From the NCBI RefSeq assembly GCF_032051675.1, contig NZ_CP116968.1:3162001-3226000 (forward strand): 64,000 nt of DNA, given 5' to 3'. The notes beneath the pieces were generated by a model that saw nothing but the letters and a program-made list of their open reading frames with translations, was not told the DNA's origin and made no database searches. Source of the DNA: Candidatus Nitrospira neomarina (GTDB lineage Bacteria > Nitrospirota > Nitrospiria > Nitrospirales > UBA8639). Made by a program: the position numbers and the translations under genes. Numbering within the stretch: the stretch's first letter is position 1; each line of letters begins with the position of its first letter. This document shows positions 7,121-49,259 of this stretch, one piece after another.

Positions 7121-7658
7121 ACGGGGTAACTCCTTTTCCGCCCGCCATTTCAGTCAGTTAAGAAACCTGCCCGCCGGAACTAGGCAGGACATATGCCAAT
7201 AGAGAGGGACCACCATGTCTTTCTGAAAGCGTTGTCCTTCACATTCTAAAAGTACCGGAACAACCGCGAATGAGAAAAACAGGAGTGCCTCAGGGCGCCT
7301 CCCATTTTCACCAAAACAGAGATCTCGCCCTTAAAAATTTTAAACCATCAATCTTTGTGGTAATGAGGCCGAAAAATGAGGGGGAAAACCGATGGAATGA
7401 CCATCTTGGTCAGCCACCGCAAAGGAAAGAAAAAGGGAATGAAGAGAGAGATAAAAACTGTACAAGGAATGGAATAATGACAAACACAACATCAAGATAA
7501 AAATGAAGACAACAGACAAAGGCAAAGTCAGTTTCGCTCTATAACCTAAAATGGAAACACCATCATCTACATTAACCATTATAACAAGGATGACAGCATT
7601 CGTCCCAACAAAACAAAAGGGAACTGCGGTCCGGTTGGGCGATCCTGCTCTGTAGAAA
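7121..7658. other. Long intergenic region
   Basis: About 540 bases between two minus-strand genes, downstream of hppA and upstream of the histidine-kinase-like gene. A small 6-bp-stem hairpin (CCTGCC/GGCAGG, about 7167-7189) lies just before the kinase start. No coding sequence with family resemblance was seen; short open frames here are low-complexity and lack ribosome-binding sites. A weak, long-looped inverted repeat near 7600-7635 could serve as the hppA terminator but is not convincing. Confidence 0.35.
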
Positions 7659-31785: not shown

Positions 31786-32655
31786 TCAACCCAACACTGA
31801 CTTCACCGTCTCGCCAATTTCAGCAGGGTTTTTTACCACTCGCACTCCAGCCGATTCGAGTGCGGCCATTTTATCGGCTGCGGTGCCCTTTCCTCCCGTG
31901 ATAATGGCGCCGGCATGGCCCATCCGCCTTCCGGGAGGTGCCGTAATTCCGGCAATGAAACTCACGACCGGCTTAGTCATCTCTTTTTGAATATAGGCCG
32001 CAGCCCGTTCCTCGGCATCGCCACCAATTTCCCCAATCATCACGACGGCTTCCGTTTCGTCGTCCTCCTGGAACATGTGCAACAAATCGATATACCCGGT
32101 TCCGATGAGAGGATCGCCACCGATGCCGACACAGGTCGTTTCGCCAAGACCTAAATTGGTCAGCTGATTGACGGCTTCGTAGGTTAGGGTGCCACTTCTT
32201 GAAATCACGCCGACCCGCCCTTTTTTATGAATGAATCCTGGCATGATCCCAATCTTGCACTCCTCGGCCGTAATAATTCCCGGACAATTTGGGCCAATCA
32301 GACGCGTGGTCTTCCCATAAAGCGCCCGCTGGACACGAACCATATCATTGACAGGAATCCCCTCTGTAATGCAGATGATCAGCCATATGCCGGCATCGGC
32401 GGCTTCTAAAATGGCATCGGCCGCAAAAGGAGGTGGCACAAAGATCAATGAGGTGGTGGCTTCAGTCTTTTTGACGGCTTCACGAACGGTATTAAACACC
32501 GGAATGCCTTCGACTTCCTGACCGGCTTTGCCAGGCGTCACGCCGGCCACGACTTGCGTTCCGTACGCCTTGCACTGGGTCGCGTGAAATGACCCTTCTT
32601 TGCCGGTAATCCCTTGAACGACGACCCGGGTATTCTTATTGACCAAAATGCTCAT
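31786..32655 (-). CDS. sucD: Succinyl-CoA ligase, alpha subunit
   Basis: With SucC it forms succinyl-CoA from succinate, CoA and ATP in the reductive direction of the cycle. The 289 residues have the CoA-binding N-terminal Rossmann domain ([17 protein letters not shown]), GPNCPGIIT, and the phospho-histidine loop [17 protein letters not shown], with the catalytic His at about residue 246. Full family length. It is the last gene of the rTCA operon, 50 nt after sucC. Confidence 0.96.
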
Positions 32656-32705: not shown

Positions 32706-33881
32706 CTATTTCTTTTTTCTGAGAGCGACAATCCGTTGAGCGGCTTCCCAGAGGTCAGCGACCCCTTCCACTTTCAAGCCTGATTCAGCCAGAAGCTTTC
32801 GGCCTTCTTCCGCATTGGTTCCTTGAAGTCGCACAACAACAGGTAGCTTGATGCCGACTTCCTTCGCTGCATCAATCACTCCATGAGCAATACGCTCGCA
32901 ACGCACAATCCCGCCGAAAATATTAATGAATATGCCCTTGACCTTTTTATCTTTCAACAGAATGCGAAATCCGGCTGCGACCGTCTCTTTTGTCGCCCCA
33001 CCGCCCACATCTAAAAAATTCGCCGGTTCGGATCCCGCCAATTTAATGACGTCCATGGTTGCCATCGCCAAACCCGCTCCGTTAACCATGCAACCGATGT
33101 CTCCATCAAGTTTGACATAGTTCAGATTATTGCTACCCGCTTCAATCTCCAACGGTTCCTCTTCGTGCAAATCTCTAAACTTTTGAATATCAGGATGTTT
33201 AAATAGTGCACTGTCATCAATTGAGACTTTTCCATCCAACGCGACCAGACGCTTATCCGTGGTGATGACCAATGGATTAATTTCCACGAGCGATGCGTTT
33301 TTTTCCATGAACAGGCGGTACAGGTTTTCCAACATTTGAAAAAACGGCTTCACCACCGCCGGCTCAAGCTCTGGAAGTCCCAAGCCGAAGGCCAAATTTC
33401 TTCCATTGTACCCTTGGAATCCCACTGCCGGATCAATGGACTCTTTCAGCAATTTGTCCGGCGTATGTTCGGCCACTTCCTCAATGTCCATGCCACCTTC
33501 TGTACTGGCAATAAATGTCGGAAAGCCTGACTCACGGTCTACCAGTAAACTCAAATACAATTCCTTCGCAATCCCTGCACCTTCTTCAATCAGTAGGCGC
33601 CGAACTTTTCGGCCCTTGGGACCTGTCTGATGGGTCACCAGAGTTTTCCCGAGAATTTCCTTAGCCAGTTCCGGTACTTCAGTTTTATTTTTGGTTAATT
33701 TGACCCCACCGGCTTTGCCACGTCCACCCGCATGAATCTGCGCTTTCACCACAAATACGGGGGTATCAAGAACTGAGGCCCACTTTTCAGCCGCTTTGAC
33801 GTTTTTGATTTCCTTGCCTTTGGGTACAGGAATCCCAAACTGTGCAAAGAGCTGTTTGGCTTGAAACTCGTGAATATTCAT
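32706..33881 (-). CDS. sucC: Succinyl-CoA ligase, beta subunit
   Basis: 391 residues with the ATP-grasp domain: N-terminal MNIHEFQAKQLFAQFGIPVPKG, VVKAQIHAGGRGKAGG nucleotide-binding strand, VEINPLVI metal-binding segment, and C-terminal CoA-ligase domain with FLDVGGGATKE and GIFINIFGGIVRCERIA. It provides the nucleotide and succinate-binding half of the enzyme. It starts 83 nt after frdA and precedes sucD. Confidence 0.96.
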   Translation of the reverse strand: MNIHEFQAKQLFAQFGIPVPKGKEIKNVKAAEKWASVLDTPVFVVKAQIHAGGRGKAGGVKLTKNKTEVPELAKEILGKTLVTHQTGPKGRKVRRLLIEEGAGIAKELYLSLLVDRESGFPTFIASTEGGMDIEEVAEHTPDKLLKESIDPAVGFQGYNGRNLAFGLGLPELEPAVVKPFFQMLENLYRLFMEKNASLVEINPLVITTDKRLVALDGKVSIDDSALFKHPDIQKFRDLHEEEPLEIEAGSNNLNYVKLDGDIGCMVNGAGLAMATMDVIKLAGSEPANFLDVGGGATKETVAAGFRILLKDKKVKGIFINIFGGIVRCERIAHGVIDAAKEVGIKLPVVVRLQGTNAEEGRKLLAESGLKVEGVADLWEAAQRIVALRKKK

Positions 33882-33964: not shown

Positions 33965-35542
33965 TTACTTGTTGGTGTAAGACGGCAAGACCATAGGTGA
34001 AATGATACCAGCAGACACATGATGCCGTTTGGCTTCGGCTCGAAATCTCTTCAGATGGTCTAAGGTCAACGAGCTTTTCGGCAGAGATTTTGACCGCTCT
34101 GCAGCAAGAATACCTGTTCGCTTGCCAAACACCATTAAGTCCAACAAGGAATTCCCCATGAGCCGGTTTCGCCCATGTAATCCGCCGGAAGCCTCTCCCG
34201 CCACGAACAAATTGGCCACAGGCGTTTCTCCATTCACATCAATTTTGACGCCCCCGTTTTGATAATGCAGCGTGGGATAGATCAGCACCGGGTCTTTCCG
34301 AATATCGACCTGGTAGCGCTCATACTGCCGAACCATCGCGGGAAAATGTTTGTCCAATGTTCCCGGTCCATGTTCCACATCTAACAACGGCGTATCCAGC
34401 CAGACGCCCACCCTTCCTGATGGTGTTCGAACGCCCCGCCCCTCTTCACATTCCCGAATGATCGACGAGGACACAACATCACGGGTATCCAATTCATTCA
34501 CAAAGCGCTCGCCCTTCCCATTCACCAAATGGCCGCCTTCAGAGCGAATGCCTTCTGTCACCAGCGCACCGACTAATTGCTCAGGATACACCCCACCTGA
34601 AGGATGGTATTGAAAGGTATCGATTTGAACGAGAGGCACGCCGAGACGATAGGCCAGGACCAGGGCATCCCCTGTCGCCCCGAAATGATTGCTGGTTGGA
34701 AATCCCTGAATGTGCAACCGGCCAATTCCGCCTGTTGCCAGGATCACCGTTTTAGCGGAAACGACGATGAACCGATTGTTGTCTAAATCTTTCAGCACCG
34801 CTCCCGTGCAGGCCCCATCGGCATCGCTTAACAATTCCACCGCAGCGACAAATTCCAGCAACGGAACCTTCTGGTTCAGTACTTCGTCCTTCAACACTCG
34901 CATGATTTCCAAACCGGTGTAATCGGAGCAGGTTAACAGCCTGGCCTTTGAGCTTCCTCCCCCTTTTTTCACATGCAGATTTCCATCGGCATCCCGATCG
35001 AATAAGACACCCAATTCCAACAGCCATTTCGCAATAGACGGTCCCTCTTCCACCATGACCTTCAACAACTGGTGGTCATTTTTCATGTGCCCGCCCTTTA
35101 AGGTGTCTAAGAAATGCTGGACAGGCGAATCGTCCGAGCCGACGGCAATTTGCATCCCGCCTTGGGCCATGACCGAGTTGGAATCCCCCAGGCGCAACTT
35201 GGTGGCCAGTAACACATTGGCTCCCTGGGCATGGGCATGGAGCGCCGATGCGCACCCTGCCCCTCCTCCACCAACGACCAGGACATCCACGGTGTAATCG
35301 GGAGTGAGATTAAGATCGGCCGGAACCGGGCTCTCCCCTTCTAATAGGGTCGCCACTTCGGTCACGGTTGATTGACCGGCATTCGGCCCAAAGATAATCG
35401 GCCGGTAGGCATGAGCCCGATGATCAGGATGGTATTGCTTGATAAGGCTATCCCGTTCGGCTGGAGAAAGCTTGGGAAAACTTTTAGACCGACGGGCGTC
35501 CCTGGTTTGATGAACTAAATTTCTCTGATCGGTAAGTTCCAT
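33965..35542 (-). CDS. frdA: Fumarate reductase-type flavoprotein subunit, without covalent-FAD histidine
   Basis: 525 residues of the succinate dehydrogenase/fumarate reductase flavoprotein family. The FAD dinucleotide fold opens VDVLVVGGGGAGCASA (about 85-100). Active-site residues are visible: H313 in QYHPSGG, R333 in EGIRSEGG, the HYQNGG segment and RLMGNSLLDLMVFGKR. Where E. coli FrdA has RSHTVAAEGG with the His that carries FAD covalently, this protein has DSNSVMAQGG, so N122 replaces it and FAD should be bound non-covalently. An extension of about 80 residues precedes the FAD domain. In this operon it most likely reduces fumarate for the rTCA cycle. It lies 21 nt after frdB; no membrane-anchor gene follows. 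Confidence 0.88.
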   Translation of the reverse strand: MELTDQRNLVHQTRDARRSKSFPKLSPAERDSLIKQYHPDHRAHAYRPIIFGPNAGQSTVTEVATLLEGESPVPADLNLTPDYTVDVLVVGGGGAGCASALHAHAQGANVLLATKLRLGDSNSVMAQGGMQIAVGSDDSPVQHFLDTLKGGHMKNDHQLLKVMVEEGPSIAKWLLELGVLFDRDADGNLHVKKGGGSSKARLLTCSDYTGLEIMRVLKDEVLNQKVPLLEFVAAVELLSDADGACTGAVLKDLDNNRFIVVSAKTVILATGGIGRLHIQGFPTSNHFGATGDALVLAYRLGVPLVQIDTFQYHPSGGVYPEQLVGALVTEGIRSEGGHLVNGKGERFVNELDTRDVVSSSIIRECEEGRGVRTPSGRVGVWLDTPLLDVEHGPGTLDKHFPAMVRQYERYQVDIRKDPVLIYPTLHYQNGGVKIDVNGETPVANLFVAGEASGGLHGRNRLMGNSLLDLMVFGKRTGILAAERSKSLPKSSLTLDHLKRFRAEAKRHHVSAGIISPMVLPSYTNK

Positions 35543-35563
35543 GAGAGAAACAAGAAAAACTGA

Positions 35564-36280
35564 TTAGGTTGTGGCGGCGGAGGTATTTTGTAATTCCTCA
35601 TCGGACAACTTGAGGACCCGATCCCATTCCTGCTGAAAACGTCCATCGGTAATCTCTTGAATACGTTTCGAGAGGCCTTCAGGTTTTTCGGTGAAATGCA
35701 CGCCTTGAGCCCGGCTGGCATAGAGCGCGACAAGATTGGGAGCAATATCAGCGATACAGACGGGCGCACACATTCCACACATGACACAATCCATAAACAT
35801 TTCAGAGACCGCTTTAAAATCCCCAAACACCGCTTTCCACACCCCTTCCCGCACATCAATAGTTTGCGGGCAGGCTTCCGTGCAGGCATTACAGTTCCGA
35901 CATAAGGGAGCTTCAGGATAGAGTGTAAACAAGTCCTGCTTAGGATCTTTGAGCTCCAGAAGGTTGTAGGTCGCTTTTCTCGCCGGAAAAGCCGGCATAA
36001 ACGAAAAGGACATGCCATCCTCGACTGCCATCGAACAGGCCAAACAGGTTTTGACCTTGGGATCGTCTTTCGTACGGTAATAGGTCGCACAGGCTCCACA
36101 GAAGCCGCCTAAGCATCCAACTCCACGAATCACATCCTGCCCTGCATACCACAAGGCCTTGATCAGGGTGATACCTGCGGGAACCTGGAACGGTTTCCCT
36201 TCAATCTCCACGGTAACCATCTTGGGTTGGAGACGCTCTTCTTGGTCCAGAGTATTTTTTTTATCCAATGTGTCAGGCAT
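35564..36280 (-). CDS. frdB: Fumarate reductase-type iron-sulfur subunit with two [4Fe-4S] motifs
   Basis: 238 residues. A ferredoxin-like [2Fe-2S] domain (about 21-100) has C56, C61, C64 and C79 or C82 in GVGCLGGFCGAC and KTCLAC. A helical domain carries two CxxCxxCxxxC motifs, C127-C130-C133-C137 and C165-C168-C171-C175. Classical SdhB/FrdB has one [4Fe-4S] and one [3Fe-4S] site; here both look like [4Fe-4S] sites. It would pass electrons to FrdA. It has no membrane segment, and no anchor subunit lies in the operon, so a soluble enzyme with an unknown electron donor is likely. Start at 36280 lacks a strong ribosome-binding site. Confidence 0.88.
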   Translation of the reverse strand: MPDTLDKKNTLDQEERLQPKMVTVEIEGKPFQVPAGITLIKALWYAGQDVIRGVGCLGGFCGACATYYRTKDDPKVKTCLACSMAVEDGMSFSFMPAFPARKATYNLLELKDPKQDLFTLYPEAPLCRNCNACTEACPQTIDVREGVWKAVFGDFKAVSEMFMDCVMCGMCAPVCIADIAPNLVALYASRAQGVHFTEKPEGLSKRIQEITDGRFQQEWDRVLKLSDEELQNTSAATT

Positions 36281-36357: not shown

Positions 36358-38604
36358 TTAATTTAGCGCGTTCAACGCGGAACCAGCCTTAAACCAGGTG
36401 ATCTGTTGTTCGGTCATACTATGATTGGCCTGAATGACCACTTCCTGACCGTCCTTCTTGTGAAGGACAACTTGCACTGGCTTGCCTGGTGCAAGTCCAC
36501 TTAACCCTTTCACACTGATCCGGTCTTCTTGTTCAATTTGATCATAATCCTTCGGATTCGCAAACGTCAGCGGAAGAATGCCTTGCTTCTTGAGATTGGT
36601 CTCATGAATGCGAGCAAAACTTTTTGTCAGAACAGCTTGGACACCCAAAAATCTCGGAGACATCGCCGCATGCTCACGGCTGCTCCCTTCACCATAGTTT
36701 TCATCCCCCACGACAAACGACCCCAAACCTTTTTCTTTATACCTTCGGGCAATTTGCGCAAGAGTCAATCCCGACTCTCCGGTTAAAACATCATTGCCTT
36801 TTCCGGCCTCATCTGAAAAGGCATTGTTGGCTCCAAGAAACATGTTGTCACTGATCTTGTCCAAATGTCCCCGGAATTTGAGCCACGGACCGGCGGGAGA
36901 GATATGATCCGTTGTGGTTTTCCCCTTGGTTTTAATTAATAACGGCAACTTTTCAAAATCTTTTCCATCCCATTTTGGGAAAGGCTTTAATAATTGCAAT
37001 CGCTCACTGGTAGGAGGAATGTCCACTTGAAGCTTCGAACCATCCTCAGCAGGTTGAACTAAACCTTCTTCGCCTTTAGCAAAACCCTTGGCCGGCAATT
37101 CATCTCCCTGAGGCGCCTCAAACTTGAACTCTTTCCCATCTGCGGTTTTCAAGGTCCCCTTAATCGGATCAAAGCCCAGATCACCTGAAAATGCATAAGC
37201 CGTGACCACTTCAGGACTGGCCAGGAAAGATAAGGTCTCACTCACCCCATCATTCCGCCCAGGGAAATTTCGGTTAAACGTACTGACAATAGAGTCGGCT
37301 TTGCCTTTCACGGCATCCGCTCGTTTCCATTGACCAATGCAGGGTCCACAGGCATTTGCCAGGACGGTGGCCCCCATGCTTTCAAAGGTCTCCAAAAATC
37401 CTTCGCGCTTCATGGTGTGGTAAATCCGTTCTGATCCCGGGCTGACCAGAAAAGCCGTTTTGGCTTTAAGTCCAGCTTGTAACCCTTGCTTGGCAATATG
37501 CGCCGCGCGACCGATATCTTCATACGAAGAATTCGTACAGCTTCCGACTAATGTTGCTTTTAATTGAACGGGATAACCTTTTTCTTTGGCTTCCGCTGCC
37601 ATCTTTGAAATGGGCCGCGCCAAATCAGGGGTATGCGGTCCCACAACATGCGGCTCTAGAGTGGACAGATCGATTTCGACGATTTCATCAAAGTATTTTT
37701 CCGGAGACTGATAGACTTCAGGGTCTGCAACCAACATGCTCCGGTTGGCAGCGGCCAATTTGGCAATGTCAGCCCGCTCCGTGATATTCAAGTATGCCAC
37801 CATTTTTTCATCGAACGGGAAAATAGAAGTCGTGGCGCCAAGCTCAGCTCCCATATTGGTAATCGTGCCTTTGCCTGTCGCACTGATGGTTTCCGCGCCA
37901 GGGCCAAAATACTCCACGATCTTATTGGTCCCACCCTTCACGGTCAGAAGCCCGCAAATATACAAAATGACATCTTTTGGCGAAGCCCAGCCACTCAGCT
38001 TTCCGGTTAACTTTACGCCGATGAGTTTAGGATGGAGGACCTCCCATGGGAGACCTGCCATTACTTCCCCCGCATCGGCTCCACCCACGCCAATGGCCAG
38101 CATTCCCAACCCGCCACCGTTTGGCGTGTGTGAATCGGTTCCAATGATCAATCCGCCTGGAAATGCATAATTTTCCAACACCACCTGATGGATGATCCCG
38201 GCCCCAGGCTTCCAAAATCCGATCCCATATTTTTTCGCGGCCGAGGCAAGAAAATTATAGACTTCTCGGTTTTCATCACATGCGCGCAGAAGATCCTTTT
38301 CCGACCCGACTTCAGCCCGGATCAGGTGATCGCAGTGAATGGTACTTGGAACAGCGACTTGATCTTTCCCCGCTTGCATAAACTGCAACATGGCCATTTG
38401 GGCTGTCGCATCCTGCATCGCGACTCTATCGGGACGGAGCGCCAACATGGCCTTTCCACGTTCCCATACTTGTGAATCGAAATCATCGGCATGGCTGACC
38501 AGGATTTTTTCCGTCAGCGTGAGAGGCCGCCCAAATTTTTTGCGAGCTTTGTCCACGATTCCCGGCATTGAAGCATACAGTTTTTCGACCATTTCTAGGG
38601 ACAT
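36358..38604 (-). CDS. acn: Aconitate hydratase, mitochondrial type
   Basis: Interconverts citrate and isocitrate through a [4Fe-4S] cluster. The 748 residues match the mitochondrial-aconitase branch very closely: RPDRVAMQDATAQMAMLQF, PSTIHCDHLI, IGTDSHTPNGGGLG, SGWTSPKDVIL-like SGWASPKDVIL, and FARIHETNLKKQG. Cluster ligands are the Cys in VGSCTNSSYED and the two in ACGPCIGQW; the substrate-binding DENYGEGSSREHAA is intact. The ATG at 38604 has GGAG at 8 nt; the frame extends to 38646 without support. It lies 67 nt after aclA in the rTCA operon. Confidence 0.95.
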   Translation of the reverse strand: MSLEMVEKLYASMPGIVDKARKKFGRPLTLTEKILVSHADDFDSQVWERGKAMLALRPDRVAMQDATAQMAMLQFMQAGKDQVAVPSTIHCDHLIRAEVGSEKDLLRACDENREVYNFLASAAKKYGIGFWKPGAGIIHQVVLENYAFPGGLIIGTDSHTPNGGGLGMLAIGVGGADAGEVMAGLPWEVLHPKLIGVKLTGKLSGWASPKDVILYICGLLTVKGGTNKIVEYFGPGAETISATGKGTITNMGAELGATTSIFPFDEKMVAYLNITERADIAKLAAANRSMLVADPEVYQSPEKYFDEIVEIDLSTLEPHVVGPHTPDLARPISKMAAEAKEKGYPVQLKATLVGSCTNSSYEDIGRAAHIAKQGLQAGLKAKTAFLVSPGSERIYHTMKREGFLETFESMGATVLANACGPCIGQWKRADAVKGKADSIVSTFNRNFPGRNDGVSETLSFLASPEVVTAYAFSGDLGFDPIKGTLKTADGKEFKFEAPQGDELPAKGFAKGEEGLVQPAEDGSKLQVDIPPTSERLQLLKPFPKWDGKDFEKLPLLIKTKGKTTTDHISPAGPWLKFRGHLDKISDNMFLGANNAFSDEAGKGNDVLTGESGLTLAQIARRYKEKGLGSFVVGDENYGEGSSREHAAMSPRFLGVQAVLTKSFARIHETNLKKQGILPLTFANPKDYDQIEQEDRISVKGLSGLAPGKPVQVVLHKKDGQEVVIQANHSMTEQQITWFKAGSALNALN

Positions 38605-38670
38605 AGCACCATCTCCTGGGTTCAGTTCAACATGGATAAGATTCAATCAAAAAGTCCACTTACACCATCA

Positions 38671-40497
38671 TTACTTTAACGGTGGCACCTCGCGACGCTT
38701 TGGGGAGGCATAATTTACCAGATAGTCAAATAATCGTATGAGCCGACTCCCTTGCCGCTTTTGATCGGTCCAATGTCCAATCATTCCGATGGTTCGCGAC
38801 AAAATGAAGAAGCCATTGAGGCTATCTACCGGAAACCCGATATCAACCAACACCGCCGCCATGGTTCCATCAACGTTGAGAATCAGATTATCTTTTTTGA
38901 CAGCGGTTATTTTTTCGACTTCCAATGCAAAATCCAAGTGCGGAGTGGCCATGTTCAAACTTTTCACGTACCCAACCAACTCCTTCACCCGCTTATCGGG
39001 ATTTTTCAAGCTTTTGACTCGATGACCGATTCCCGGAACCGGTCCCACATTTTTCTTCATGTAGACGAGGAAATCATCGACCGAAAGTTTGTTGTCGATC
39101 GCGTATTTGAACCATCGTCCCGCGTCTGTCACCGCCCCACCAAAGCGCGGACCGATCATTATCATACCGGCCGCGACCGCTTGAGATAATCCGATTCCAG
39201 CACAAGCGGCGATAATCGTCGTCAAGGCTCCACTCACGCAAGGACCATGATCGGCCGACAGCATGATAATTCGTTTGATGATTTCTGCTTCCTGTTTGGA
39301 GACAAGACGATTGTCCCATAGCAAGCCGATAATATGGGGGATGTCATATCCGTTATTGATCAGTTCAGAAGCCGGATAACCTTGATAAAGCGGTTCATCA
39401 CCACGGTCGTCACTGATTGTGGAACGAATCAGCGGCGTCACCAGCACTTCCCCTTCCTTCATGCTCTCTTGAACCGTTTTGGGAAGCCTTGGCACATCTG
39501 CTGGAGCCAAATCCGGTATGGGCTTGACCTGTCCGCTTTTCAGTAACTCCTCGTGGGTGGCCTTGATAGCCGGCCCTAGAGCTCCGAAGGTATCCGGTAC
39601 AATCGCGCCGGCCTTTTTCAAAGCTTCAGACTTTGCCCGCGCAGACCCTTCGCCCTTCAATCCTTCTTTTGCCCCGGCATGCCCGAATTTCATACCCTTT
39701 GGAAGACTCTCTTGACAGAACCCTGATACGACCGCGAGTAATTTAATCCGGCGCTTCTTGGCGCCGTACCATTCGGCGGCCCGTTCTTCCAAATCTCCAC
39801 CCATTTCCCCGACAATGACCACCGCTTTGGTTTGCGGATCGTTTTCAAACATTTCCAGGTAGCTGACATAGTCCGTTCCTGGGTAGGCATCACCGCCGAT
39901 ACCGATCGCCGTCGTGATGCCGTCTGCAAATTGGGAACAAATCCAAATAATCTCGTTCGACAATCCCCCGGACTTGGTGACGACGCCGAAGGAACCGGGA
40001 CGATACAGTTTGCACGCCACCAAATTATCAAACGCCCCCCCGATCACTCCGAGGCGGCATTCTCCTGCCGACACTACCCCAATTGAGGAAGGGCCATTAA
40101 AAGTCTTCCCAAGCTTACGAGCATGCTTCCCCAAAAGTTTGGCATCTTTTTCCGGCACCCCTTCGGTAATCATGGAGACCGTTTTAATATGCGGGTCATT
40201 CAAGGCCTCCATGGTTCCGGCATAGGCCCGGTCTGCTCCGATATAAACCAGACTCGTGTTAATCTCCGGGTGCTTGGCCGTCGCTTCGGCGACGGTTTTA
40301 TAGATGGGGATCATTATTAACTCGGTTCCACAAATGATCTCGTTGGTCTTCCCCGCATCAGGGGGATACACGAACGCAGAGACATTTAATGGTTGCTTAA
40401 TCATGTACCGGAACTCTGCCATACGGCGAGCGGCATTCACCCCGGCCACCCCACCTTGAATGACGACATGCGTGTCTTTCGTTGCAAGAATACTCAT
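38671..40497 (-). CDS. aclA: ATP-citrate lyase, AclA (large) subunit
   Basis: Cleaves citrate to acetyl-CoA and oxaloacetate, the defining step of the rTCA cycle, together with AclB. The 608 residues comprise a succinyl-CoA-ligase-alpha-like part with phospho-His H273 in FGHAGAKEG, and a citrate-synthase-like part (about 345-608) with SADHGPCVSGALTT, GIGHRVKS and NVDGTMAAVLVDIGFP. Start at 40497 follows aclB by 35 nt. The two-gene arrangement is that of Chlorobium and Nitrospira rather than the fused animal enzyme. Confidence 0.96.
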   Translation of the reverse strand: MSILATKDTHVVIQGGVAGVNAARRMAEFRYMIKQPLNVSAFVYPPDAGKTNEIICGTELIMIPIYKTVAEATAKHPEINTSLVYIGADRAYAGTMEALNDPHIKTVSMITEGVPEKDAKLLGKHARKLGKTFNGPSSIGVVSAGECRLGVIGGAFDNLVACKLYRPGSFGVVTKSGGLSNEIIWICSQFADGITTAIGIGGDAYPGTDYVSYLEMFENDPQTKAVVIVGEMGGDLEERAAEWYGAKKRRIKLLAVVSGFCQESLPKGMKFGHAGAKEGLKGEGSARAKSEALKKAGAIVPDTFGALGPAIKATHEELLKSGQVKPIPDLAPADVPRLPKTVQESMKEGEVLVTPLIRSTISDDRGDEPLYQGYPASELINNGYDIPHIIGLLWDNRLVSKQEAEIIKRIIMLSADHGPCVSGALTTIIAACAGIGLSQAVAAGMIMIGPRFGGAVTDAGRWFKYAIDNKLSVDDFLVYMKKNVGPVPGIGHRVKSLKNPDKRVKELVGYVKSLNMATPHLDFALEVEKITAVKKDNLILNVDGTMAAVLVDIGFPVDSLNGFFILSRTIGMIGHWTDQKRQGSRLIRLFDYLVNYASPKRREVPPLK

Positions 40498-40532: not shown

Positions 40533-41729
40533 TTATTTTGCGGCCATGGCCATATCGACAATGTCCGTTAACGGCGTTTTGCGGTCAAATACCTGAATAT
40601 CAAAACCCTCATCCTGAAGCGCACGCATAGCCGCTAATCCCTGCAATTCGTTTGGACCACCCCGGCGCACCCAAATCTTGACACCCTCTAGCTTGCCTTC
40701 CGCTTTGGCCTTTCGAAACGCGTTGATAATGCCCCCAAAGGTCTTTTTGACATCGGTAAAATTCGCAATCGCTCCGCCCACAATAATATGCTTGATACCA
40801 GGCAACGAGCAGACTTTTTCCGTCAGAACTTCCACTGCCCAGTCCGGTGGATCACCTGAATATTCTGCATAATTCGCAAGTTTGCCACCACGGGCCACCA
40901 CCGCATCTGAATAATAAACGCTGGCTCCTCCACCGGCAGGTAACATCGCAATATTGCCACCGGGAATCTCAATGAGCTTGACGGAGCCTTTTACCTTGGC
41001 ATCAACCGCCATGACTTCCTCTTCATTTTTGGTATAGGCACGCCCAAACTCAGCCGCAAACGGAAAAGTCCAGTCCTTATGCCGGAACTTGGCATCACCG
41101 TCCAGAAGGGTCACCGCATCCAGAGCCACAAGTTCTCCCTGGCCACTGAGCACAACCGGATTTACTTCTACATATTGAGCATCTTCATTATCAAAACAGG
41201 CATATAATTTCTTCAAAAATTCCGCCATTTTAGCGGCCGTATCGCCGGAAAACCCCGCATCCTTCACCAGGGAGGAAAGCGCTGAATCCGAGAGGGTCTC
41301 ACCGGTCTCAATGGATACATGCTTGACCTTATCCCAATTAGATTCCACTTCGATGCCACCACAGGTCGCCACTAAGAGGTCCACTCCATCGCGCGTCGAT
41401 TTGGCCGCGGCATAATATTCTTCTTTGTGATCAACCGCTTCGGAAACAATCACCTGCCTAATCGTGAGGGTTTCCAATTCTTTACCAAGCATCTCCCGCA
41501 CAGCCGCTTTTGCCGCGGCTAAATCCAATCCCACCTTGACCAACCCCAATTTAAAACGAGAGCCAAGTGCTTCATGCGCTTTGACTACCAGTTTATTTTT
41601 TTGGAGCCAATCATTGACCTGAGACAATTGGTCAAATTCCTCACTCGAGGTCACGACAGCATAGTTGGGAGTTGAAATCCCCCATTTTCGCAATAAGCCC
41701 ATACCCGGGCCTTCAAGAACTTTTGCCAT
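40533..41729 (-). CDS. aclB: ATP-citrate lyase, AclB (small) subunit
   Basis: 398 residues, corresponding to the N-terminal, ATP-grasp and CoA-binding part of the animal enzyme. Visible are the LVVKAHEALGSRFKLGLVKV nucleotide strand, YVEVNPVVL metal-binding segment, LPAGGGASVYYSDAV and the GGAIANFTDVKKTF block. It is the first gene of the rTCA operon. A promoter with near-identical counterpart before icd lies about 80 nt upstream (41810-41838). Confidence 0.95.
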   Translation of the reverse strand: MAKVLEGPGMGLLRKWGISTPNYAVVTSSEEFDQLSQVNDWLQKNKLVVKAHEALGSRFKLGLVKVGLDLAAAKAAVREMLGKELETLTIRQVIVSEAVDHKEEYYAAAKSTRDGVDLLVATCGGIEVESNWDKVKHVSIETGETLSDSALSSLVKDAGFSGDTAAKMAEFLKKLYACFDNEDAQYVEVNPVVLSGQGELVALDAVTLLDGDAKFRHKDWTFPFAAEFGRAYTKNEEEVMAVDAKVKGSVKLIEIPGGNIAMLPAGGGASVYYSDAVVARGGKLANYAEYSGDPPDWAVEVLTEKVCSLPGIKHIIVGGAIANFTDVKKTFGGIINAFRKAKAEGKLEGVKIWVRRGGPNELQGLAAMRALQDEGFDIQVFDRKTPLTDIVDMAMAAK

Positions 41730-42176: not shown

Positions 42177-42878
42177 TCAAACACCTGGAAAAGGATTTTG
42201 GCAGAATGCCTCCTGACTCCTGCGACTTAATTGGTAAAGAAACCCCTTCTTTTCTACTCCAGCATCTTTTCGTGGAGGCCAGTTGAGCGGGACTTCTTCT
42301 ATTGCCACAATAAATTTCTCTTTAAATCCATGTTCGACGGTATCGAGCCCCAGTCTATTTGGATCACAAAACATGGCTTTCCCCTTCTGGGTAAGCACCT
42401 GTTCAAGAATATGAGAAATACCGGCTAAAATTCCTTCGTCATAAAAAACTTCACTGCCTATTACCAAATCATAAAAAAACTTTTTTGGTCCAATCTGTTC
42501 CGTCCAATTCAACAGGCATGTGTCAAATTTGCTGATGTGATTCAGACGACAGGACTCCTTTGTTGCTTCAAGGGTAATAGGCACCATATCTGAAAATATG
42601 GTAAATGCCCCGAGCCGAGCAGCAACCACTCCGGCCAACCCTGTTCCGCAGCCAATTTCCAGAACTTTGACGCCTTGTAGTTTTGATGGGAAAAACCGAT
42701 GAATGAGACATTCGGATAAGGCCACCTCAGAAGGCCAAATTCGATCCCAGTACCCCCATCCGAGGGATTCGTCATCCCGTGCATCTAATGGGGTTTCACT
42801 AGAGATGTCTCGCTTGGTCTTACAGACAATGGGAACATTCCCGATTTTGGGAAGTGTCACAACTTTCACATGACTCAC
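42177..42878 (-). CDS. Class I SAM-dependent methyltransferase (METTL20/ETFB-lysine type, tentative)
   Basis: 233 residues from a GTG at 42878. The SAM-binding motif reads KVLEIGCGTGLAGVVAARLGA, followed by FSDMVPITLEATKESC; the later segment DLVIGSEVFYDEGI occupies the place of the D/E-x-x-Y/F motif of METTL-type protein lysine methyltransferases. The target is unknown. The frame is open to 42944, but that extension is just the translated icd terminator hairpin; the GTG has AGGAG at 9 nt. The gene lies between icd and the aclB promoter, suggesting that it serves a protein of this pathway, but that is inference. Confidence 0.8.
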   Translation of the reverse strand: MSHVKVVTLPKIGNVPIVCKTKRDISSETPLDARDDESLGWGYWDRIWPSEVALSECLIHRFFPSKLQGVKVLEIGCGTGLAGVVAARLGAFTIFSDMVPITLEATKESCRLNHISKFDTCLLNWTEQIGPKKFFYDLVIGSEVFYDEGILAGISHILEQVLTQKGKAMFCDPNRLGLDTVEHGFKEKFIVAIEEVPLNWPPRKDAGVEKKGFLYQLSRRSQEAFCQNPFPGV

Positions 42879-42896
42879 ACAAATTATCTCCTCCCC

Positions 42897-42934
42897 AAAA
42901 AAGGCGAGCCGGGCTCCGTTTGGAACCCGGCTCG
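42897..42934 (-). terminator. Intrinsic terminator of icd
   Basis: CGAGCCGGGCTCC (42905-42917), GTTT loop, GGAACCCGGCTCG (42922-42934): 12 of 13 pairs. On the minus strand the stem is followed by six T (42902-42897). It lies 56 nt after the icd stop, between icd and the methyltransferase start. Confidence 0.85.
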
Positions 42935-42989
42935 TTGCACACATCCCCAGTATAAGAATAATACCGGAAGATCAGCCTACGTTGAGAAC

Positions 42990-45582: not shown

Positions 45583-46902
45583 CTAGAGAAGTTGTTGCCA
45601 ACTGAGGGTCGCAACAGGAAGTACTCGAAGGGACGCGGCGATCGGACAGGTATCCAGAGTCATCTTCACCTCGCCATTCAGTATTTGCAACTGGTCTGCC
45701 AAGAGGGCACCCTGAATGACTGAACTCCCAATTCCACCATCAAACGTCACTTGTCCAGCGACAATGATGAGTCCTTCCCAATGAAAAGGCGCGGAAATGT
45801 TTAGATTTCCCGCTACCAAAAGTATGCCATATCCATAGAGATTCTGAACGACAAGGGGGCTCGAAAATTTCCCTGCAAGCGATCCGGCATACAATAAGGC
45901 AGGATCCCCAGGCGTCCCAAGATTCATACCGACAAGATCTCCCGAAATGACCTGAGCGCCTCCCTTGAGGCTATCTAAAGCCTTAACTAAATCCAGGAAT
46001 TCCGAGCCCACTTGTGGCGTCGGGGGATTTCCTGTGAAAGTGGCGGTTCCTGCCAACGCACCTGCAGGCCCCAACTGCACCGGGGGTCGACCTCCTGGCA
46101 GAAGCCCACAATTATCAAATCCTTCTACGGCTGTGGTTCCGCCAGCAAATACGACCTGACTATTCGCATATACGGCGGCCAACAATGGCGGCCCAGACGG
46201 GTGTGCAACCTCCACTTGAATCAGGGACGTGGCACCTTCTACCTGACCCTGGCTGATGATGATTTCGACGGGGGAATATGGAGTTGGATTTGCTGACGTA
46301 AATGACGTGGGGATGAGTTCACTTTCTGATGGAAATCCAAAATAAACAAGGCTACCTCGATAATTTATTGAATGCGTCGCGCCTGTTCCATCCCCATCCT
46401 GATAGTGAGGGGTCAGAGAACTGTGTCCCGCCTGTTCCGCATCATACTCGGTTTTATGACGAATTTTAGTCCAGTAAGGGAGAACAGTTTGCACACTATT
46501 TTGAAGAACTGCCGTATTGGTGAGATTTCCACTCAAAGGAAAATAGTTGGTGAAACCCCCTGAATATTCAGGATCATACTGTGGTTTCCACTCAGGGGAG
46601 GACAACACATAGGCGGACCAATTTGCTTGCAGAATGGGAGAAGGATCGCCGAGATATCCTGGATTTGACAAGGAAGATCCACCTAAACGAACGACGGTTT
46701 CTGCGATGCCCGCCTCTGCGGCATAGAAGGTAGCCATTGCCCTTCGGAAATTTCCACTGATTTGTAGATCGGTTGACGTGGCAAACAGAATCGTCGCACC
46801 CATAATTGTGGAAATAGCGACCAATAACAAGGCTGCAATGAGCGCTCCACCCATGGAATTATGACAAGACCTTATTCCTTCCTTGCTAGTGAATCCGATC
46901 AT
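45583..46902 (-). CDS. PilX-like type IV pilus assembly protein
   Basis: 439 residues. The N-terminus has a short leader and a hydrophobic helix, GGALIAALLLVAISTIMGATI, followed by the PilX_N-type TDLQISGNFRRAMATFYAAEAGIAE. The rest is a long beta-rich region with Pro/Gly/Asn-rich repeats (GNLNISAPFHWEGLIIVAG) similar in tone to bactofilin-like or adhesin strands. It would sit at the pilus tip or help to assemble it. ATG at 46902 overlaps the upstream pilW-like stop by 4 nt. Confidence 0.8.
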   Translation of the reverse strand: MIGFTSKEGIRSCHNSMGGALIAALLLVAISTIMGATILFATSTDLQISGNFRRAMATFYAAEAGIAETVVRLGGSSLSNPGYLGDPSPILQANWSAYVLSSPEWKPQYDPEYSGGFTNYFPLSGNLTNTAVLQNSVQTVLPYWTKIRHKTEYDAEQAGHSSLTPHYQDGDGTGATHSINYRGSLVYFGFPSESELIPTSFTSANPTPYSPVEIIISQGQVEGATSLIQVEVAHPSGPPLLAAVYANSQVVFAGGTTAVEGFDNCGLLPGGRPPVQLGPAGALAGTATFTGNPPTPQVGSEFLDLVKALDSLKGGAQVISGDLVGMNLGTPGDPALLYAGSLAGKFSSPLVVQNLYGYGILLVAGNLNISAPFHWEGLIIVAGQVTFDGGIGSSVIQGALLADQLQILNGEVKMTLDTCPIAASLRVLPVATLSWQQLL

Positions 46903-47507
46903 GATTGGCCATTTCTCATCGTGATTCGGGAATGGAGAGTCACCGTTCGATATCCACCGTTTTTGGCATAGTGTGGATCAGGCTGTGACGTTCGGGCTGT
47001 CACCGAAATTCTCACTTGTCGAATAGCTTTGGAATTTGTGGTCGGGTTCCCAGCCTGATCAAGATAGGCTATGACAAACGCTTCAATATCCTCACCAAAT
47101 GGTTGATTTCCTCCACCGGTATTTCGCCGGAGCATGTGGGTCGAGGCATCATAGACAAAGACAATCGATTCATTGGCATCACCGGTGACACCATTACCAT
47201 TTAAGTCAGCCTTGATAGAGAGCTTTTGGGGATCATACGTAATCCCCTCAAAATCATTAGTAAGATCGGAATCACGATTCACTCCGCGAGGATCATAACC
47301 GGCCATCAAAATTTCTCTGGTCACCAAATCCACCACCACGCGAGCCTGTTGCTGCATGTCCAAAATATGCTCTCGCACACCCTGGGCTTTGAGTTCTTGA
47401 ATATACAGAGCATAGACCACACTCACTGTCAGGAGACTCAAGCTCAGGGCCACCACGACCTCAACGAGGGTATACCCCTGTGGGGACCCTATCGAAACAT
47501 GTGGCAT
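46899..47507 (-). CDS. PilW-like minor pilin
   Basis: About 202 residues with a class III (type IV prepilin) signal: SPQG-YTLVEVVVALSLSLLTVSVVY, with cleavage expected after Gly and Glu at +5. The mature N-terminal helix continues into QQARVVVDLVTREILMAGYD, the standard PilW pattern. The start may be the ATG at 47507 or a GTG at 47519; the frame is open to 47573 but would overlap pilV. It lies in an operon of four minor pilins. Confidence 0.82.
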   Translation of the reverse strand: MPHVSIGSPQGYTLVEVVVALSLSLLTVSVVYALYIQELKAQGVREHILDMQQQARVVVDLVTREILMAGYDPRGVNRDSDLTNDFEGITYDPQKLSIKADLNGNGVTGDANESIVFVYDASTHMLRRNTGGGNQPFGEDIEAFVIAYLDQAGNPTTNSKAIRQVRISVTARTSQPDPHYAKNGGYRTVTLHSRITMRNGQS

Positions 47508-47521
47508 CTGCGTATTCACTT

Positions 47522-47938
47522 TTACTTTGTGAGATATGTGGTAAGTGTGGTGGTATGTGCATCGTGATCCCACCGCACTGCGACCGTGACAGTGTGTAAC
47601 CCGGATATTGGAAAATGCGGTTGAATCGTGAGCATCCGTTGATGTTGACTCGCACCATCAATGGAGCCATAGGGTTCCGTGGTGGTCCATGTACCGGTTA
47701 ACGAACTTGGCACTCCATCCCGGCGCACATCTTCCAATTTTTCCTGGGCGAGGGTGACGGCTCGGGTCATTTTTTCACTCGCGGTCATGCCGGTATGAGC
47801 GACAACGGAATAGGATGCAAATCCAAGGAGCGCCAGGAAAACCACCACCAGGGCCATTAGCACTTCTAACAATGAGAACCCTCGTTGATCTCGCAGGCAA
47901 CTCGTCAGTCGATATCTCTCATGAATCATGATGTTCAT
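47522..47938 (-). CDS. PilV-like minor pilin
   Basis: 138 residues with the prepilin signal QRG-FSLLEVLMALVVVFLALLGFA and Glu at +5. The following SEKMTRAVTLAQEKLEDVRRDG helix is typical of PilV. Its ATG at 47938 overlaps the stop of the fimT-like gene (TAATG). Confidence 0.82.
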   Translation of the reverse strand: MNIMIHERYRLTSCLRDQRGFSLLEVLMALVVVFLALLGFASYSVVAHTGMTASEKMTRAVTLAQEKLEDVRRDGVPSSLTGTWTTTEPYGSIDGASQHQRMLTIQPHFPISGLHTVTVAVRWDHDAHTTTLTTYLTK

Positions 47939-48522
47939 TAAGACTTCACTTTTACCCGTCCGGTTATGCTAACCGTAATGATCCGTTTTCCGGCTGAATT
48001 GGACAGGGTAATAGAAGCTAAGCTGGACGCCGTTCCTCTTGGCAGAAAGGAGGGATTGTTGGTGGCCGTCATCATGACATCTCGAAAACTCTCCTGAATA
48101 TCGCGAGCTACAAGATGCTCGCCCGGGTCGGACTTTCCATTATTATTATCATCATCCAATAACACATACCGATGATTATCCTGAAAGAAGACTCGTTGCC
48201 TATTCCGCTCCATCACGGCCTTCATTTTTGACCCTAAAAGGTCAGAGGCCACCTGTCTGGCTGCTCCATTCAATCGCCAATGAGGTAACTGGGATACCAA
48301 CCAGGTCTGAGCTAACATTAAGACTACCCCGATAATGCCAAGCACGATGATTAATTCAGTGAGGGTAAAACCTCTGGCACACAAAAGAGATCTCTTTAAT
48401 CGTCTTGTCCCTGTTAGACTAACGTCTTGAACCGGCTCCGTGTGATCGCACCTGCCTTGCTGAATTCGTTGAGTACTTATAACAAGCCATGAAAATACCA
48501 GTGCCATATCTCCGTTCCCCAC
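47938..48522 (-). CDS. FimT/GspH-like minor pilin
   Basis: 194 residues as drawn. The prepilin signal is ARG-FTLTELIIVLGIIGVVLML with Glu at +5, followed by RLNGAARQVASDLLGSKMKAVMERN, the GspH/FimT pattern. The leader of about 50 residues before the cleavage site is unusually long, and the start overlaps the pilD 3' end by 46 nt (ATG at 48507 is an alternative). No credible start lies closer. Confidence 0.8.
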   Translation of the reverse strand: MGNGDMALVFSWLVISTQRIQQGRCDHTEPVQDVSLTGTRRLKRSLLCARGFTLTELIIVLGIIGVVLMLAQTWLVSQLPHWRLNGAARQVASDLLGSKMKAVMERNRQRVFFQDNHRYVLLDDDNNNGKSDPGEHLVARDIQESFRDVMMTATNNPSFLPRGTASSLASITLSNSAGKRIITVSITGRVKVKS

Positions 48523-49259
48523 ACCACCGCGATCAGACCGCCAAGCGCTAAGTATGGTCCGAAAGGAATATATTGACCTTTTTCAAGGACCTTCGTGGCC
48601 AGCAATATTATCCCGACAACCGCTCCCACCACTGATCCCACCATCAGGATAAGAATGGCCTGCTGCCACCCCAAAAAGGCTCCAACCATAGCCAAAAACT
48701 TAATATCACCACCTCCAATACCTTCTTTCCCGAACAAGAAGGGACTGACCCAGGCGAGAGCTAGTAAAATCCCCCCTCCCACCAATAGACCGATAAGCGA
48801 ATTGACCCAGCCCGTCGGTAGCAGAAAGGATGCGCACAAAAAGCCAACTACAATTCCAGGTAAGGTAATCACATCCGGAATAATTTTGTGGTCCCAATCA
48901 ATCCAAGCCACCACAAGGAACACCGACACCAATCCCGCATACACGATCGTGGGCCACGTGAGCCCAAACCGCCAGACCACCAGGAGATAACCTAAGCCAT
49001 TTGCCAACTCAATAATGGGGTATCTTCGCGGAATACCGGCATGGCAAGCTCGACACCTCCCTAGTAGCCAGATAAAACTCAAAAGTGGAACATTGTCGTA
49101 CCAGGAAATCTGGCTGCCGCAATGGGGGCATGTCGACCGAGGAGCCACTACCGATTGTCCCTTTGGCACCCTATGCACACATACCGTCAAGAAACTCCCA
49201 ATGATCGTTCCCAGAATAAAGACGCTCGGCCAAACAATCCAGTGAGACATATAAGTCAC
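48477..49259 (-). CDS. pilD: Prepilin peptidase (leader peptidase/N-methyltransferase)
   Basis: 260 residues with about eight membrane segments. It cleaves the leader of type IV prepilins and methylates the new N-terminus. Visible are the GSFLTVCVHRVP motif, the zinc-type pairs CPHC and CRAC in the first cytoplasmic loop, and both catalytic Asp sites: WIDWDHKIIPD and GGGDIKFL. It is the first gene of the minus-strand pilin operon, directly matching its function to the four prepilins that follow. Confidence 0.93.
   Translation of the reverse strand: MTYMSHWIVWPSVFILGTIIGSFLTVCVHRVPKGQSVVAPRSTCPHCGSQISWYDNVPLLSFIWLLGRCRACHAGIPRRYPIIELANGLGYLLVVWRFGLTWPTIVYAGLVSVFLVVAWIDWDHKIIPDVITLPGIVVGFLCASFLLPTGWVNSLIGLLVGGGILLALAWVSPFLFGKEGIGGGDIKFLAMVGAFLGWQQAILILMVGSVVGAVVGIILLATKVLEKGQYIPFGPYLALGGLIAVVWGTEIWHWYFHGLL

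What the first reader, a model, noticed from the sequence alone, without database searches (positions are those of the whole stretch)
33965..36280. Atypical, apparently soluble fumarate reductase: no covalent-FAD histidine and two [4Fe-4S] motifs
FrdA has Asn (N122, DSNSVMAQGG) at the place of the FAD-linking His of classical enzymes, while catalytic His and Arg are kept. FrdB has two regular CxxCxxCxxxC motifs, where classical subunits have one [4Fe-4S] and one [3Fe-4S] site. No membrane-anchor gene is in the operon. Together this suggests an enzyme that does not use the quinone pool and takes electrons from ferredoxin, NAD(P)H or thiols, like the soluble fumarate reductases of Hydrogenobacter or methanogens (family knowledge). 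This would fit a reductive cycle in an aerobic nitrite oxidiser.
Basis: partly seen in the sequence, partly recalled or inferred. Interest (0 to 1): 0.65.

Follow-up and report, generated by a model that had tools for sequence, protein, structure and literature searches.

The report
Quinone-free fumarate reductase in Nitrospira
The carbon-fixation gene cluster of these nitrite-oxidising bacteria encodes an unusual, apparently soluble fumarate reductase that most likely draws its electrons from NADH instead of from the membrane quinone pool that published models assume, which would change how the cell's reducing power is accounted for and can be tested directly.

Summary
FrdA (33965-35542, -) has Asn122 where classical enzymes link FAD to His, and keeps the other catalytic residues. 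FrdB (35564-36280, -) has two regular CxxCxxCxxxC motifs. No anchor gene lies in the operon (acl-acn-frdB-frdA-sucC-sucD).

Better evidence supports the conclusion. FrdA forms a fully supported clade apart from SdhA/FrdA and NadB, with an N-terminal extension, no C-terminal domain, and Gly/Pro/Ala where fumarate reductases have Phe. Elsewhere these frdBA genes sit beside NADH-dehydrogenase genes: frdB-frdA-nuoF in proteobacteria, frdBA-sucCD-nuoF in other Nitrospirota, and Flox or Hdr-Flox modules in Ilyobacter and two Nitrospirota families. Nitrospirales encode a NuoF of that clade (32/32 genomes) beside a ferredoxin and malate dehydrogenase.

Best explanation: a soluble NADH:fumarate reductase (FrdAB plus separately encoded NuoF) for the reductive TCA cycle, working like the Hydrogenobacter enzyme but with a different subunit set. 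The partner assignment is inferred and no assay exists. Main rivals: the NuoF serves the 2M-type complex I, or an unknown membrane anchor exists.

The parts
33965..35542 (-). frdA: 525-aa flavoprotein, fumarate-reductase-like, non-covalent FAD predicted
   Evidence: translation; PF00890 276 bits, no PF02910; tree
35564..36280 (-). frdB: 238-aa Fe-S protein, one [2Fe-2S] and two CxxCxxCxxxC sites
35297..35542 (-). N-terminal extension of FrdA (residues 1-82) with conserved HPD...GxN signature, absent from SdhA/FrdA/NadB of E. coli
   Evidence: P39, D40, G52, N54 invariant
35177..35179 (-). codon of Asn122, at the place of the FAD-linking His
34961..34963 (-). codon of Gly194, where E. coli FrdA/SdhA have Phe and NadB has Glu
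34604..34606 (-). codon of His313 (E. coli FrdA His232)
34481..34483 (-). codon of Arg354 (E. coli FrdA Arg287, proton donor)
34265..34267 (-). codon of His426 (E. coli FrdA His355)
34163..34165 (-). codon of Arg460 (E. coli FrdA Arg390)
36035..36115 (-). [2Fe-2S] site of FrdB, Cys56, Cys61, Cys64, Cys82
   Evidence: invariant columns
35870..35902 (-). first [4Fe-4S] motif of FrdB, Cys127-Cys137
35756..35788 (-). second [4Fe-4S] motif of FrdB, Cys165-Cys175; Cys168 is Val in E. coli FrdB ([3Fe-4S])
32706..33881 (-). [quoted passage not shown]
31786..32655 (-). [quoted passage not shown]
36358..38646 (-). aconitase
   Evidence: conserved neighbour
38671..40497 (-). ATP-citrate lyase subunit A
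   Evidence: conserved neighbour
40533..41729 (-). ATP-citrate lyase subunit B
   Evidence: conserved neighbour

Best explanation
FrdAB is a soluble, quinone-independent fumarate reductase that runs the fumarate-to-succinate step of the reductive TCA cycle. NADH is the most likely donor. A NuoF-type NADH-binding subunit (FMN plus one [4Fe-4S]), encoded elsewhere in the genome beside malate dehydrogenase and a [2Fe-2S] ferredoxin, hands electrons to the distal [4Fe-4S] of FrdB. They then pass through the second [4Fe-4S] and the [2Fe-2S] to the non-covalent FAD of FrdA and on to fumarate. Shown: the genes, residues, motifs, phylogeny and gene linkages. Inferred: fumarate as substrate (from operon and active site), NADH as donor, the physical FrdAB-NuoF complex, the cluster order, and solubility. 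By textbook potentials, NADH to fumarate is about 350 mV downhill, so the step would be irreversible in the reductive direction. That would keep it independent of a quinone pool that is expected to be oxidised during nitrite respiration and could otherwise drive succinate oxidation.
For: Tree: 23 FrdA rows form one clade (100/100), apart from quinone-linked SdhA/FrdA (100/99) and NadB (100/100). The same genome holds a separate type-E SdhA-SdhB-SdhE set beside citrate synthase that could serve the oxidative role. Gene linkage: frdB-frdA-nuoF in Cupriavidus, Paraburkholderia and Pseudoroseomonas replicons; frdB-frdA-sucC-sucD-nuoF in Nitrospirota family f10, where contigs C104 and C105 of G025 overlap inside sucD and G006 has sucC-sucD-nuoF; Flox NAD(P)H modules beside frdBA in family f5; HdrABC-MvhD-Flox-frdB-frdA in Ilyobacter and in the second f10 copy. 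The Nitrospirales NuoF groups at 100/99 with these Frd-adjacent NuoFs and apart from complex I NuoF. It is present in 32 of 32 Nitrospirales genomes, next to the ferredoxin in 30 of 30 loci and with malate dehydrogenase visible in 26 of 30. Published transcriptome: a lone SdhA/NadB-like flavoprotein gene and an orphan nuoF beside a ferredoxin gene are both highly expressed in N. moscoviensis, while complex II genes are below the median (PMC6606698).
Against: No assay exists. In Nitrospirales nuoF is not in the frd operon. NuoFs of the same broad clade also occur in families f6 and f12, which lack FrdA; there they sit beside a cytochrome b, so the module is not exclusive to FrdAB. The 2M-type complex I of this genome lacks NuoE/NuoF and could use the orphan NuoF. 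Phe-to-Gly at residue 194 departs from the fumarate reductases known to me, so the substrate is not beyond doubt. The transcriptome gene NITMOv2_0695 could not be matched to this FrdA by sequence.
Confidence: 0.6

Rival explanations
1. FrdAB is a quinol:fumarate reductase of a type-E-like kind, held at the membrane by a small subunit encoded elsewhere (for example a PsiE-like protein such as orf1 of Leptospirillum).
For: Levican et al. 2008 called the L. ferriphilum FrdAB type E and proposed orf1, in the same operon, as its anchor (PMC2607301). I find such a gene in that position (L156:11430-12038) and distant homologs (38-41%) elsewhere in Nitrospirales genomes, including this one. Type-E anchors need no transmembrane helix.
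Against: orf1 has no match in G100, G112 and G016, which have FrdAB. In this genome and in G071 the homolog sits by CBS-domain genes. FrdA does not group with type-E SdhA. All CCG (SdhE-like) genes of this genome are accounted for: one beside sdhAB, and two others (open frames of 425 and 937 aa) at unrelated loci. Bioenergetically, an oxidised quinone pool favours succinate oxidation.
Confidence: 0.15
2. The orphan NuoF belongs to the 2M-type complex I for ferredoxin reduction, and FrdAB takes electrons directly from reduced ferredoxin or another unlinked carrier.
For: The NuoF-2M idea is published for N. moscoviensis (PMC6606698). The 2M complex of this genome (L266) has no NuoE/NuoF.
Against: All three family f10 genomes carry the same NuoF clade, in G006 and G025 directly after sucCD of the frdBA operon, yet have only one complex I NuoD (581-583 aa frame, fused NuoCD type) and no second, 2M-like one. 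Proteobacterial frdB-frdA-nuoF operons point the same way.
Confidence: 0.15
3. FrdA acts on a different C4 or larger enoic acid, or works as an iminoaspartate-forming enzyme, and the operon position is incidental.
For: The Phe that covers fumarate in FrdA/SdhA is Gly, Pro or Ala in this clade. The proteobacterial homologs are flanked by dicarboxylate transporters and not by TCA genes.
Against: frdBA with sucCD downstream is kept in Nitrospirales, f3-f5, f10 and f13. Fumarate-binding and proton-transfer residues are intact. A separate canonical NadB is present. The Ilyobacter copy lies by aspartase, a fumarate producer.
Confidence: 0.07

Closest known systems
Soluble NADH-dependent fumarate reductase of Hydrogenobacter thermophilus (Miura et al. 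2008, cited in PMC12743299 and PMC10521678; subunits FrdA-E listed for Aquifex in PMC10052474)
   Same: Soluble, NADH donor (proposed here), reductive TCA cycle, practically irreversible direction
   Different: Five subunits, with a 63.9-kDa FrdA in Aquifex and a protein annotated nox as FrdD. The window enzyme has a 525-aa FrdA without C-terminal domain and a candidate NuoF donor subunit. Sequence homology beyond the superfamily could not be tested.
FrdAB of Leptospirillum ferriphilum (Levican et al. 2008, PMC2607301)
   Same: Same kind of rTCA gene cluster; family f13 loci with the ccs/ccl cluster carry orthologous FrdA at 50-55%
   Different: Filed there as type E, quinol-linked, with orf1 as proposed anchor. 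The Asn at the FAD site and the separate clade argue against that filing.
Thiol:fumarate reductase TfrAB of methanogens
   Same: Best NCBIfam match of FrdA (350 bits); soluble (family knowledge)
   Different: Far below the family cut-off (718 bits). FrdB lacks the CCG domain of TfrB, with 23.6 bits against a cut-off of 385. CoM/CoB thiols are not expected in Nitrospirota (family knowledge).
Type-E succinate:quinone oxidoreductase (SdhABE), as in this genome's L096
   Same: Two CxxCxxCxxxC motifs in the Fe-S subunit
   Different: SdhA has the FAD-linking His and a longer C-terminus, with an adjacent SdhE; separate clade
L-aspartate oxidase NadB
   Same: Non-covalent FAD; Asn also in this genome's NadB
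   Different: NadB has Glu where this clade has Gly194, has no Fe-S partner subunit, and forms its own clade
HdrABC-FloxABCD NAD(P)H-linked bifurcating modules
   Same: Adjacent to frdBA of this clade in Ilyobacter and Nitrospirota f10
   Different: No HdrA in the window genome; its single strong Flox-like hit belongs to a hydrogenase gene cluster

Membership tests
FAD_binding_2 / fumarate reductase-succinate dehydrogenase-NadB superfamily | Significant match over the FAD and capping domains | tested here: met
   PF00890 276.5 bits, residues 86-466
FAD_binding_2 / fumarate reductase-succinate dehydrogenase-NadB superfamily | Catalytic His, Thr, Glu, Arg, His, Arg set | tested here: met
   All six kept
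Classical quinone-linked SdhA/FrdA (types A-E) | FAD-linking His | tested here: not met
   Asn122, Asn in all 97 orthologs
Classical quinone-linked SdhA/FrdA (types A-E) | Grouping with SdhA/FrdA in a tree | tested here: not met
   Separate clades, 100/100 and 100/99
Classical quinone-linked SdhA/FrdA (types A-E) | C-terminal domain PF02910 | tested here: not met
   No match; only about 65 residues after the substrate Arg
Classical quinone-linked SdhA/FrdA (types A-E) | Anchor subunit (SdhC/D, SdhC, or SdhE) | tested here: inconclusive
   None in the operon; CCG genes accounted for; an unknown anchor elsewhere cannot be excluded
Thiol:fumarate reductase TfrAB | NCBIfam TfrA equivalog cut-off | tested here: not met
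   350.3 bits against 718
Thiol:fumarate reductase TfrAB | TfrB with C-terminal CCG domain | tested here: not met
   FrdB 238 aa, no PF02754
L-aspartate oxidase | NCBIfam NadB cut-off and active-site Glu | tested here: not met
   291 bits against 452.75; Gly194 at the Glu position
Hydrogenobacter-type NADH-dependent fumarate reductase | NADH:fumarate activity in the soluble fraction | not testable with these tools
   Needs biochemistry
Hydrogenobacter-type NADH-dependent fumarate reductase | Homologous FrdC, FrdD, FrdE subunits | not tested
   No Aquificota sequence was reachable; the original paper is not held
FrdAB-NuoF NADH-linked clade (proposed here) | NuoF of the same clade encoded in the genome | tested here: met
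   G000:C1:2918007-2919299; tree 100/99
FrdAB-NuoF NADH-linked clade (proposed here) | NuoF in the same operon as frdBA | tested here: not met
   In Nitrospirales it lies with mdh and ferredoxin instead; operon linkage only in f10 and proteobacteria

The most novel reading that the evidence does not exclude
The FrdAB-NuoF system couples NADH oxidation both to fumarate and to a low-potential ferredoxin (flavin-based electron bifurcation), so that the exergonic fumarate step of the cycle helps make the reduced ferredoxin that Nitrospira needs for CO2 fixation and whose origin is unknown. The HdrABC-Flox-linked relatives in Ilyobacter and family f10 would be the clearer bifurcating cases.
Probability: 0.05. 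Interest if true: 0.9.

Novelty: new variant of a known kind. Interest (0 to 1): 0.52.

Why it matters
Published flux models of Nitrospira send quinol electrons through succinate dehydrogenase to reduce fumarate (PMC8407350). If the enzyme of the carbon-fixation operon is NADH-fed instead, the electron and proton-motive-force budget of one of the main nitrite oxidisers changes. A reason also appears why a reductive TCA cycle can run in an aerobe whose quinone pool is oxidised. It also gives a function to an orphan, very highly expressed nuoF gene that has so far been tentatively tied to complex I.

Tried and rejected
AlphaFold models of FrdA (mean pLDDT 55) and FrdB (43.5) were too poor to use, probably because the permitted alignments were too uniform. 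No flavin-site geometry or fold search was attempted on them. A scan of viral contigs for further FrdA relatives found none. A search of the own genome with a 25-residue HdrA fragment was uninformative and was replaced by a full-length search with positive controls. The Flox-like protein of the own genome was rejected as partner because it lies in a hydrogenase gene cluster and is not conserved in the related genomes G071 and G049. Genes between frdA and sucC in L138 were rejected as part of the system, being on the opposite strand and unrelated in look. The membrane protein between mdh and nuoF in the Nitrospira genus was not taken as an anchor, since there is no room for it in the window genome.

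Full report
Setting. The window lies in a single-contig genome of the order Nitrospirales (G000, C1:3162001-3226000), close to the NPIRA03/NPIRA06 MAGs. The minus strand carries IDH, aclB, aclA, acnA, frdB, frdA, sucC and sucD. The order acn-(IDH)-frdB-frdA-sucC-sucD is kept in about 80 Nitrospirales loci, with no additional conserved gene seen between frdB and frdA.

Observation. FrdA (525 aa) and FrdB (238 aa) are intact. Asn122 stands at the FAD-linking His. H313, T329, E330, R354, H426 and R460 match the catalytic set of E. coli FrdA. Asn is invariant in 97 orthologs. FrdB has one [2Fe-2S] and two regular CxxCxxCxxxC motifs in 107 of 107 sequences. E. coli FrdB has Val in place of the second Cys of the second motif. 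A hydropathy scan finds no membrane segment in FrdA. The single weak peak in FrdB is the cysteine-rich motif itself.

The same genome has a second, type-E set: SdhA with the FAD-linking His, SdhB, and an SdhE-like CCG protein, beside citrate synthase. Its SdhB also has two regular [4Fe-4S] motifs, so that feature alone does not speak against quinones. Asn at the His place is shared with this genome's NadB, so that feature alone shows only a non-covalent flavin.

Family position. FrdA is below every curated NCBIfam cut-off among its 25 best matches; the nearest is TfrA (350 bits against 718). A maximum-likelihood tree of 49 sequences puts 23 FrdA rows in one clade (100/100), away from SdhA/FrdA (100/99) and NadB (100/100). 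One haloarchaeal long branch joins weakly (58/31). The clade is not confined to Nitrospirota: near-full-length relatives occur in Ilyobacter polytropus (53%), Cupriavidus, Paraburkholderia, Caballeronia and Pseudoroseomonas, each with the matching FrdB.

Electron donor from gene neighbourhoods. In the proteobacterial replicons the order is frdB-frdA-nuoF, flanked by what look like C4-dicarboxylate transporters in Cupriavidus and Paraburkholderia. In Ilyobacter it is aspartase-hdrB-hdrC-hdrA-mvhD-flox genes-frdB-frdA. In Nitrospirota family f10 one copy has the same Hdr-Flox arrangement, and the other is frdB-frdA-sucC-sucD-nuoF. In family f5 the order is frdB-frdB-frdA-sucC-sucD followed by the Flox genes. 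By domains, the NuoF and Flox parts are NAD(P)H-oxidising inputs. No membrane quinone module was seen beside the FrdAB copies inspected, apart from orf1 in Leptospirillia-like family f13.

The Nitrospirales partner. The window genome has two NuoF proteins: one in complex I (L160) and one orphan (G000:C1:2918007-2919299). The orphan lies with malate dehydrogenase, the enzyme two steps before fumarate reductase in the cycle, and with a [2Fe-2S] ferredoxin. It is present in all 32 Nitrospirales genomes examined at 68-100% identity, beside the ferredoxin in 30 of 30 loci and with malate dehydrogenase visible in 26 of 30. In the NuoF tree it falls in an 18-row clade (100/99) with the Frd-adjacent NuoFs, apart from complex I NuoF and formate dehydrogenase beta subunits. 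FrdA was found in 31 of the 32 genomes. In the exception, G018, FrdB sits at a contig edge, so the gap is probably an assembly effect. Family f5, which has Flox beside frdBA, has no NuoF hit better than complex I ones (E about 1e-106 at best), as if the two input modules replace each other.

Published data. In N. [quoted passage not shown] A lone SdhA/NadB-like flavoprotein gene is far more expressed than the SDH genes, which are below the median (PMC6606698). The nuoF-ferredoxin-insertion-protein order matches what I see in a Nitrospira-type genome. I could not match the locus tags by sequence. The published flux model uses quinol and succinate dehydrogenase for fumarate reduction (PMC8407350).

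Rivals. The anchor hypothesis of Levican et al. (PMC2607301) rests on orf1. My candidate for it has a PsiE match just under the Pfam cut-off, no match in G100, G112 and G016, and homologs by CBS-domain genes in this genome and G071. The 2M-complex hypothesis for the orphan NuoF is real: the 2M complex of this genome has no NuoE/NuoF. But the f10 genomes link this NuoF clade to frdBA-sucCD and have no second complex I. NuoFs of the clade also occur beside cytochrome b in families without FrdA, so the module is reusable. That is the main weakness of the partner assignment.

Mechanism and confidence. Fumarate reductase role in the reductive cycle: about 0.9. Not quinone-linked: about 0.75. NADH through this NuoF: about 0.6. 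With textbook potentials (NADH -320 mV, fumarate +30 mV) the reaction is about 350 mV downhill. That fits a one-way reductive step in an aerobe and costs more reverse electron transport than a quinol-linked enzyme.

Novelty. Soluble NADH-dependent fumarate reduction in a reductive TCA cycle is known from Hydrogenobacter. What is new here is a distinct FrdA clade with its own architecture, exchangeable NADH-input modules, and its place in Nitrospira carbon fixation, where quinol had been assumed. I found no experiment or paper on this in the open literature searched; subscription papers could not be searched.

Noticed in passing
L134:715-9617; L141:1190-10551; L143; L144: HdrC/HdrB-HdrA-MvhD-Flox-FrdB-FrdA clusters in Ilyobacter (beside aspartase) and in Nitrospirota family f10: candidates for an electron-bifurcating NADH:fumarate reductase.
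   Followed up: partly
L139:7530-8989; L145-L147 around 7300-8950: Two different frdB genes in tandem before a single frdA in families f4 and f5 of Nitrospirota.
   Followed up: no
L194:156-3502; L197:1816-5233: NuoF proteins of the same clade encoded directly beside a large cytochrome b gene in families without FrdA, perhaps a small NADH:quinone or NADH:cytochrome system.
   Followed up: partly
L266:6678-18751 (G000:C1:3850677-3862750): 2M-type complex I of the window genome (NuoA,B,C,D,G,I,J,K,L,M,M by look) without NuoE or NuoF.
   Followed up: partly
L156:11430-12038; G000:C1:624039-624431: PsiE-like membrane protein (orf1) in the Leptospirillia-like rTCA operon, with distant homologs by CBS-domain genes in Nitrospirales.
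   Followed up: partly
L215:368-2394 (G000:C1:4777084-4777899): Genes that look like a group 3b hydrogenase in the window genome; the Flox/HydG-like subunit was not found at comparable strength in the related genomes G071 and G049.
   Followed up: no
L202:6541-7128: Membrane protein with a urate-oxidase-N (PuuD-like) match between mdh and nuoF in a Nitrospira genome, missing at that place in the window genome.
   Followed up: no
window 42177-42944: ORF of 255 aa between IDH and aclB that is poorly conserved among close relatives (42-84%) and of unknown function.
   Followed up: no
window 45583-49259: Run of overlapping genes that look like type IV pilus minor pilins and a prepilin peptidase upstream of the carbon-fixation operon.
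   Followed up: no
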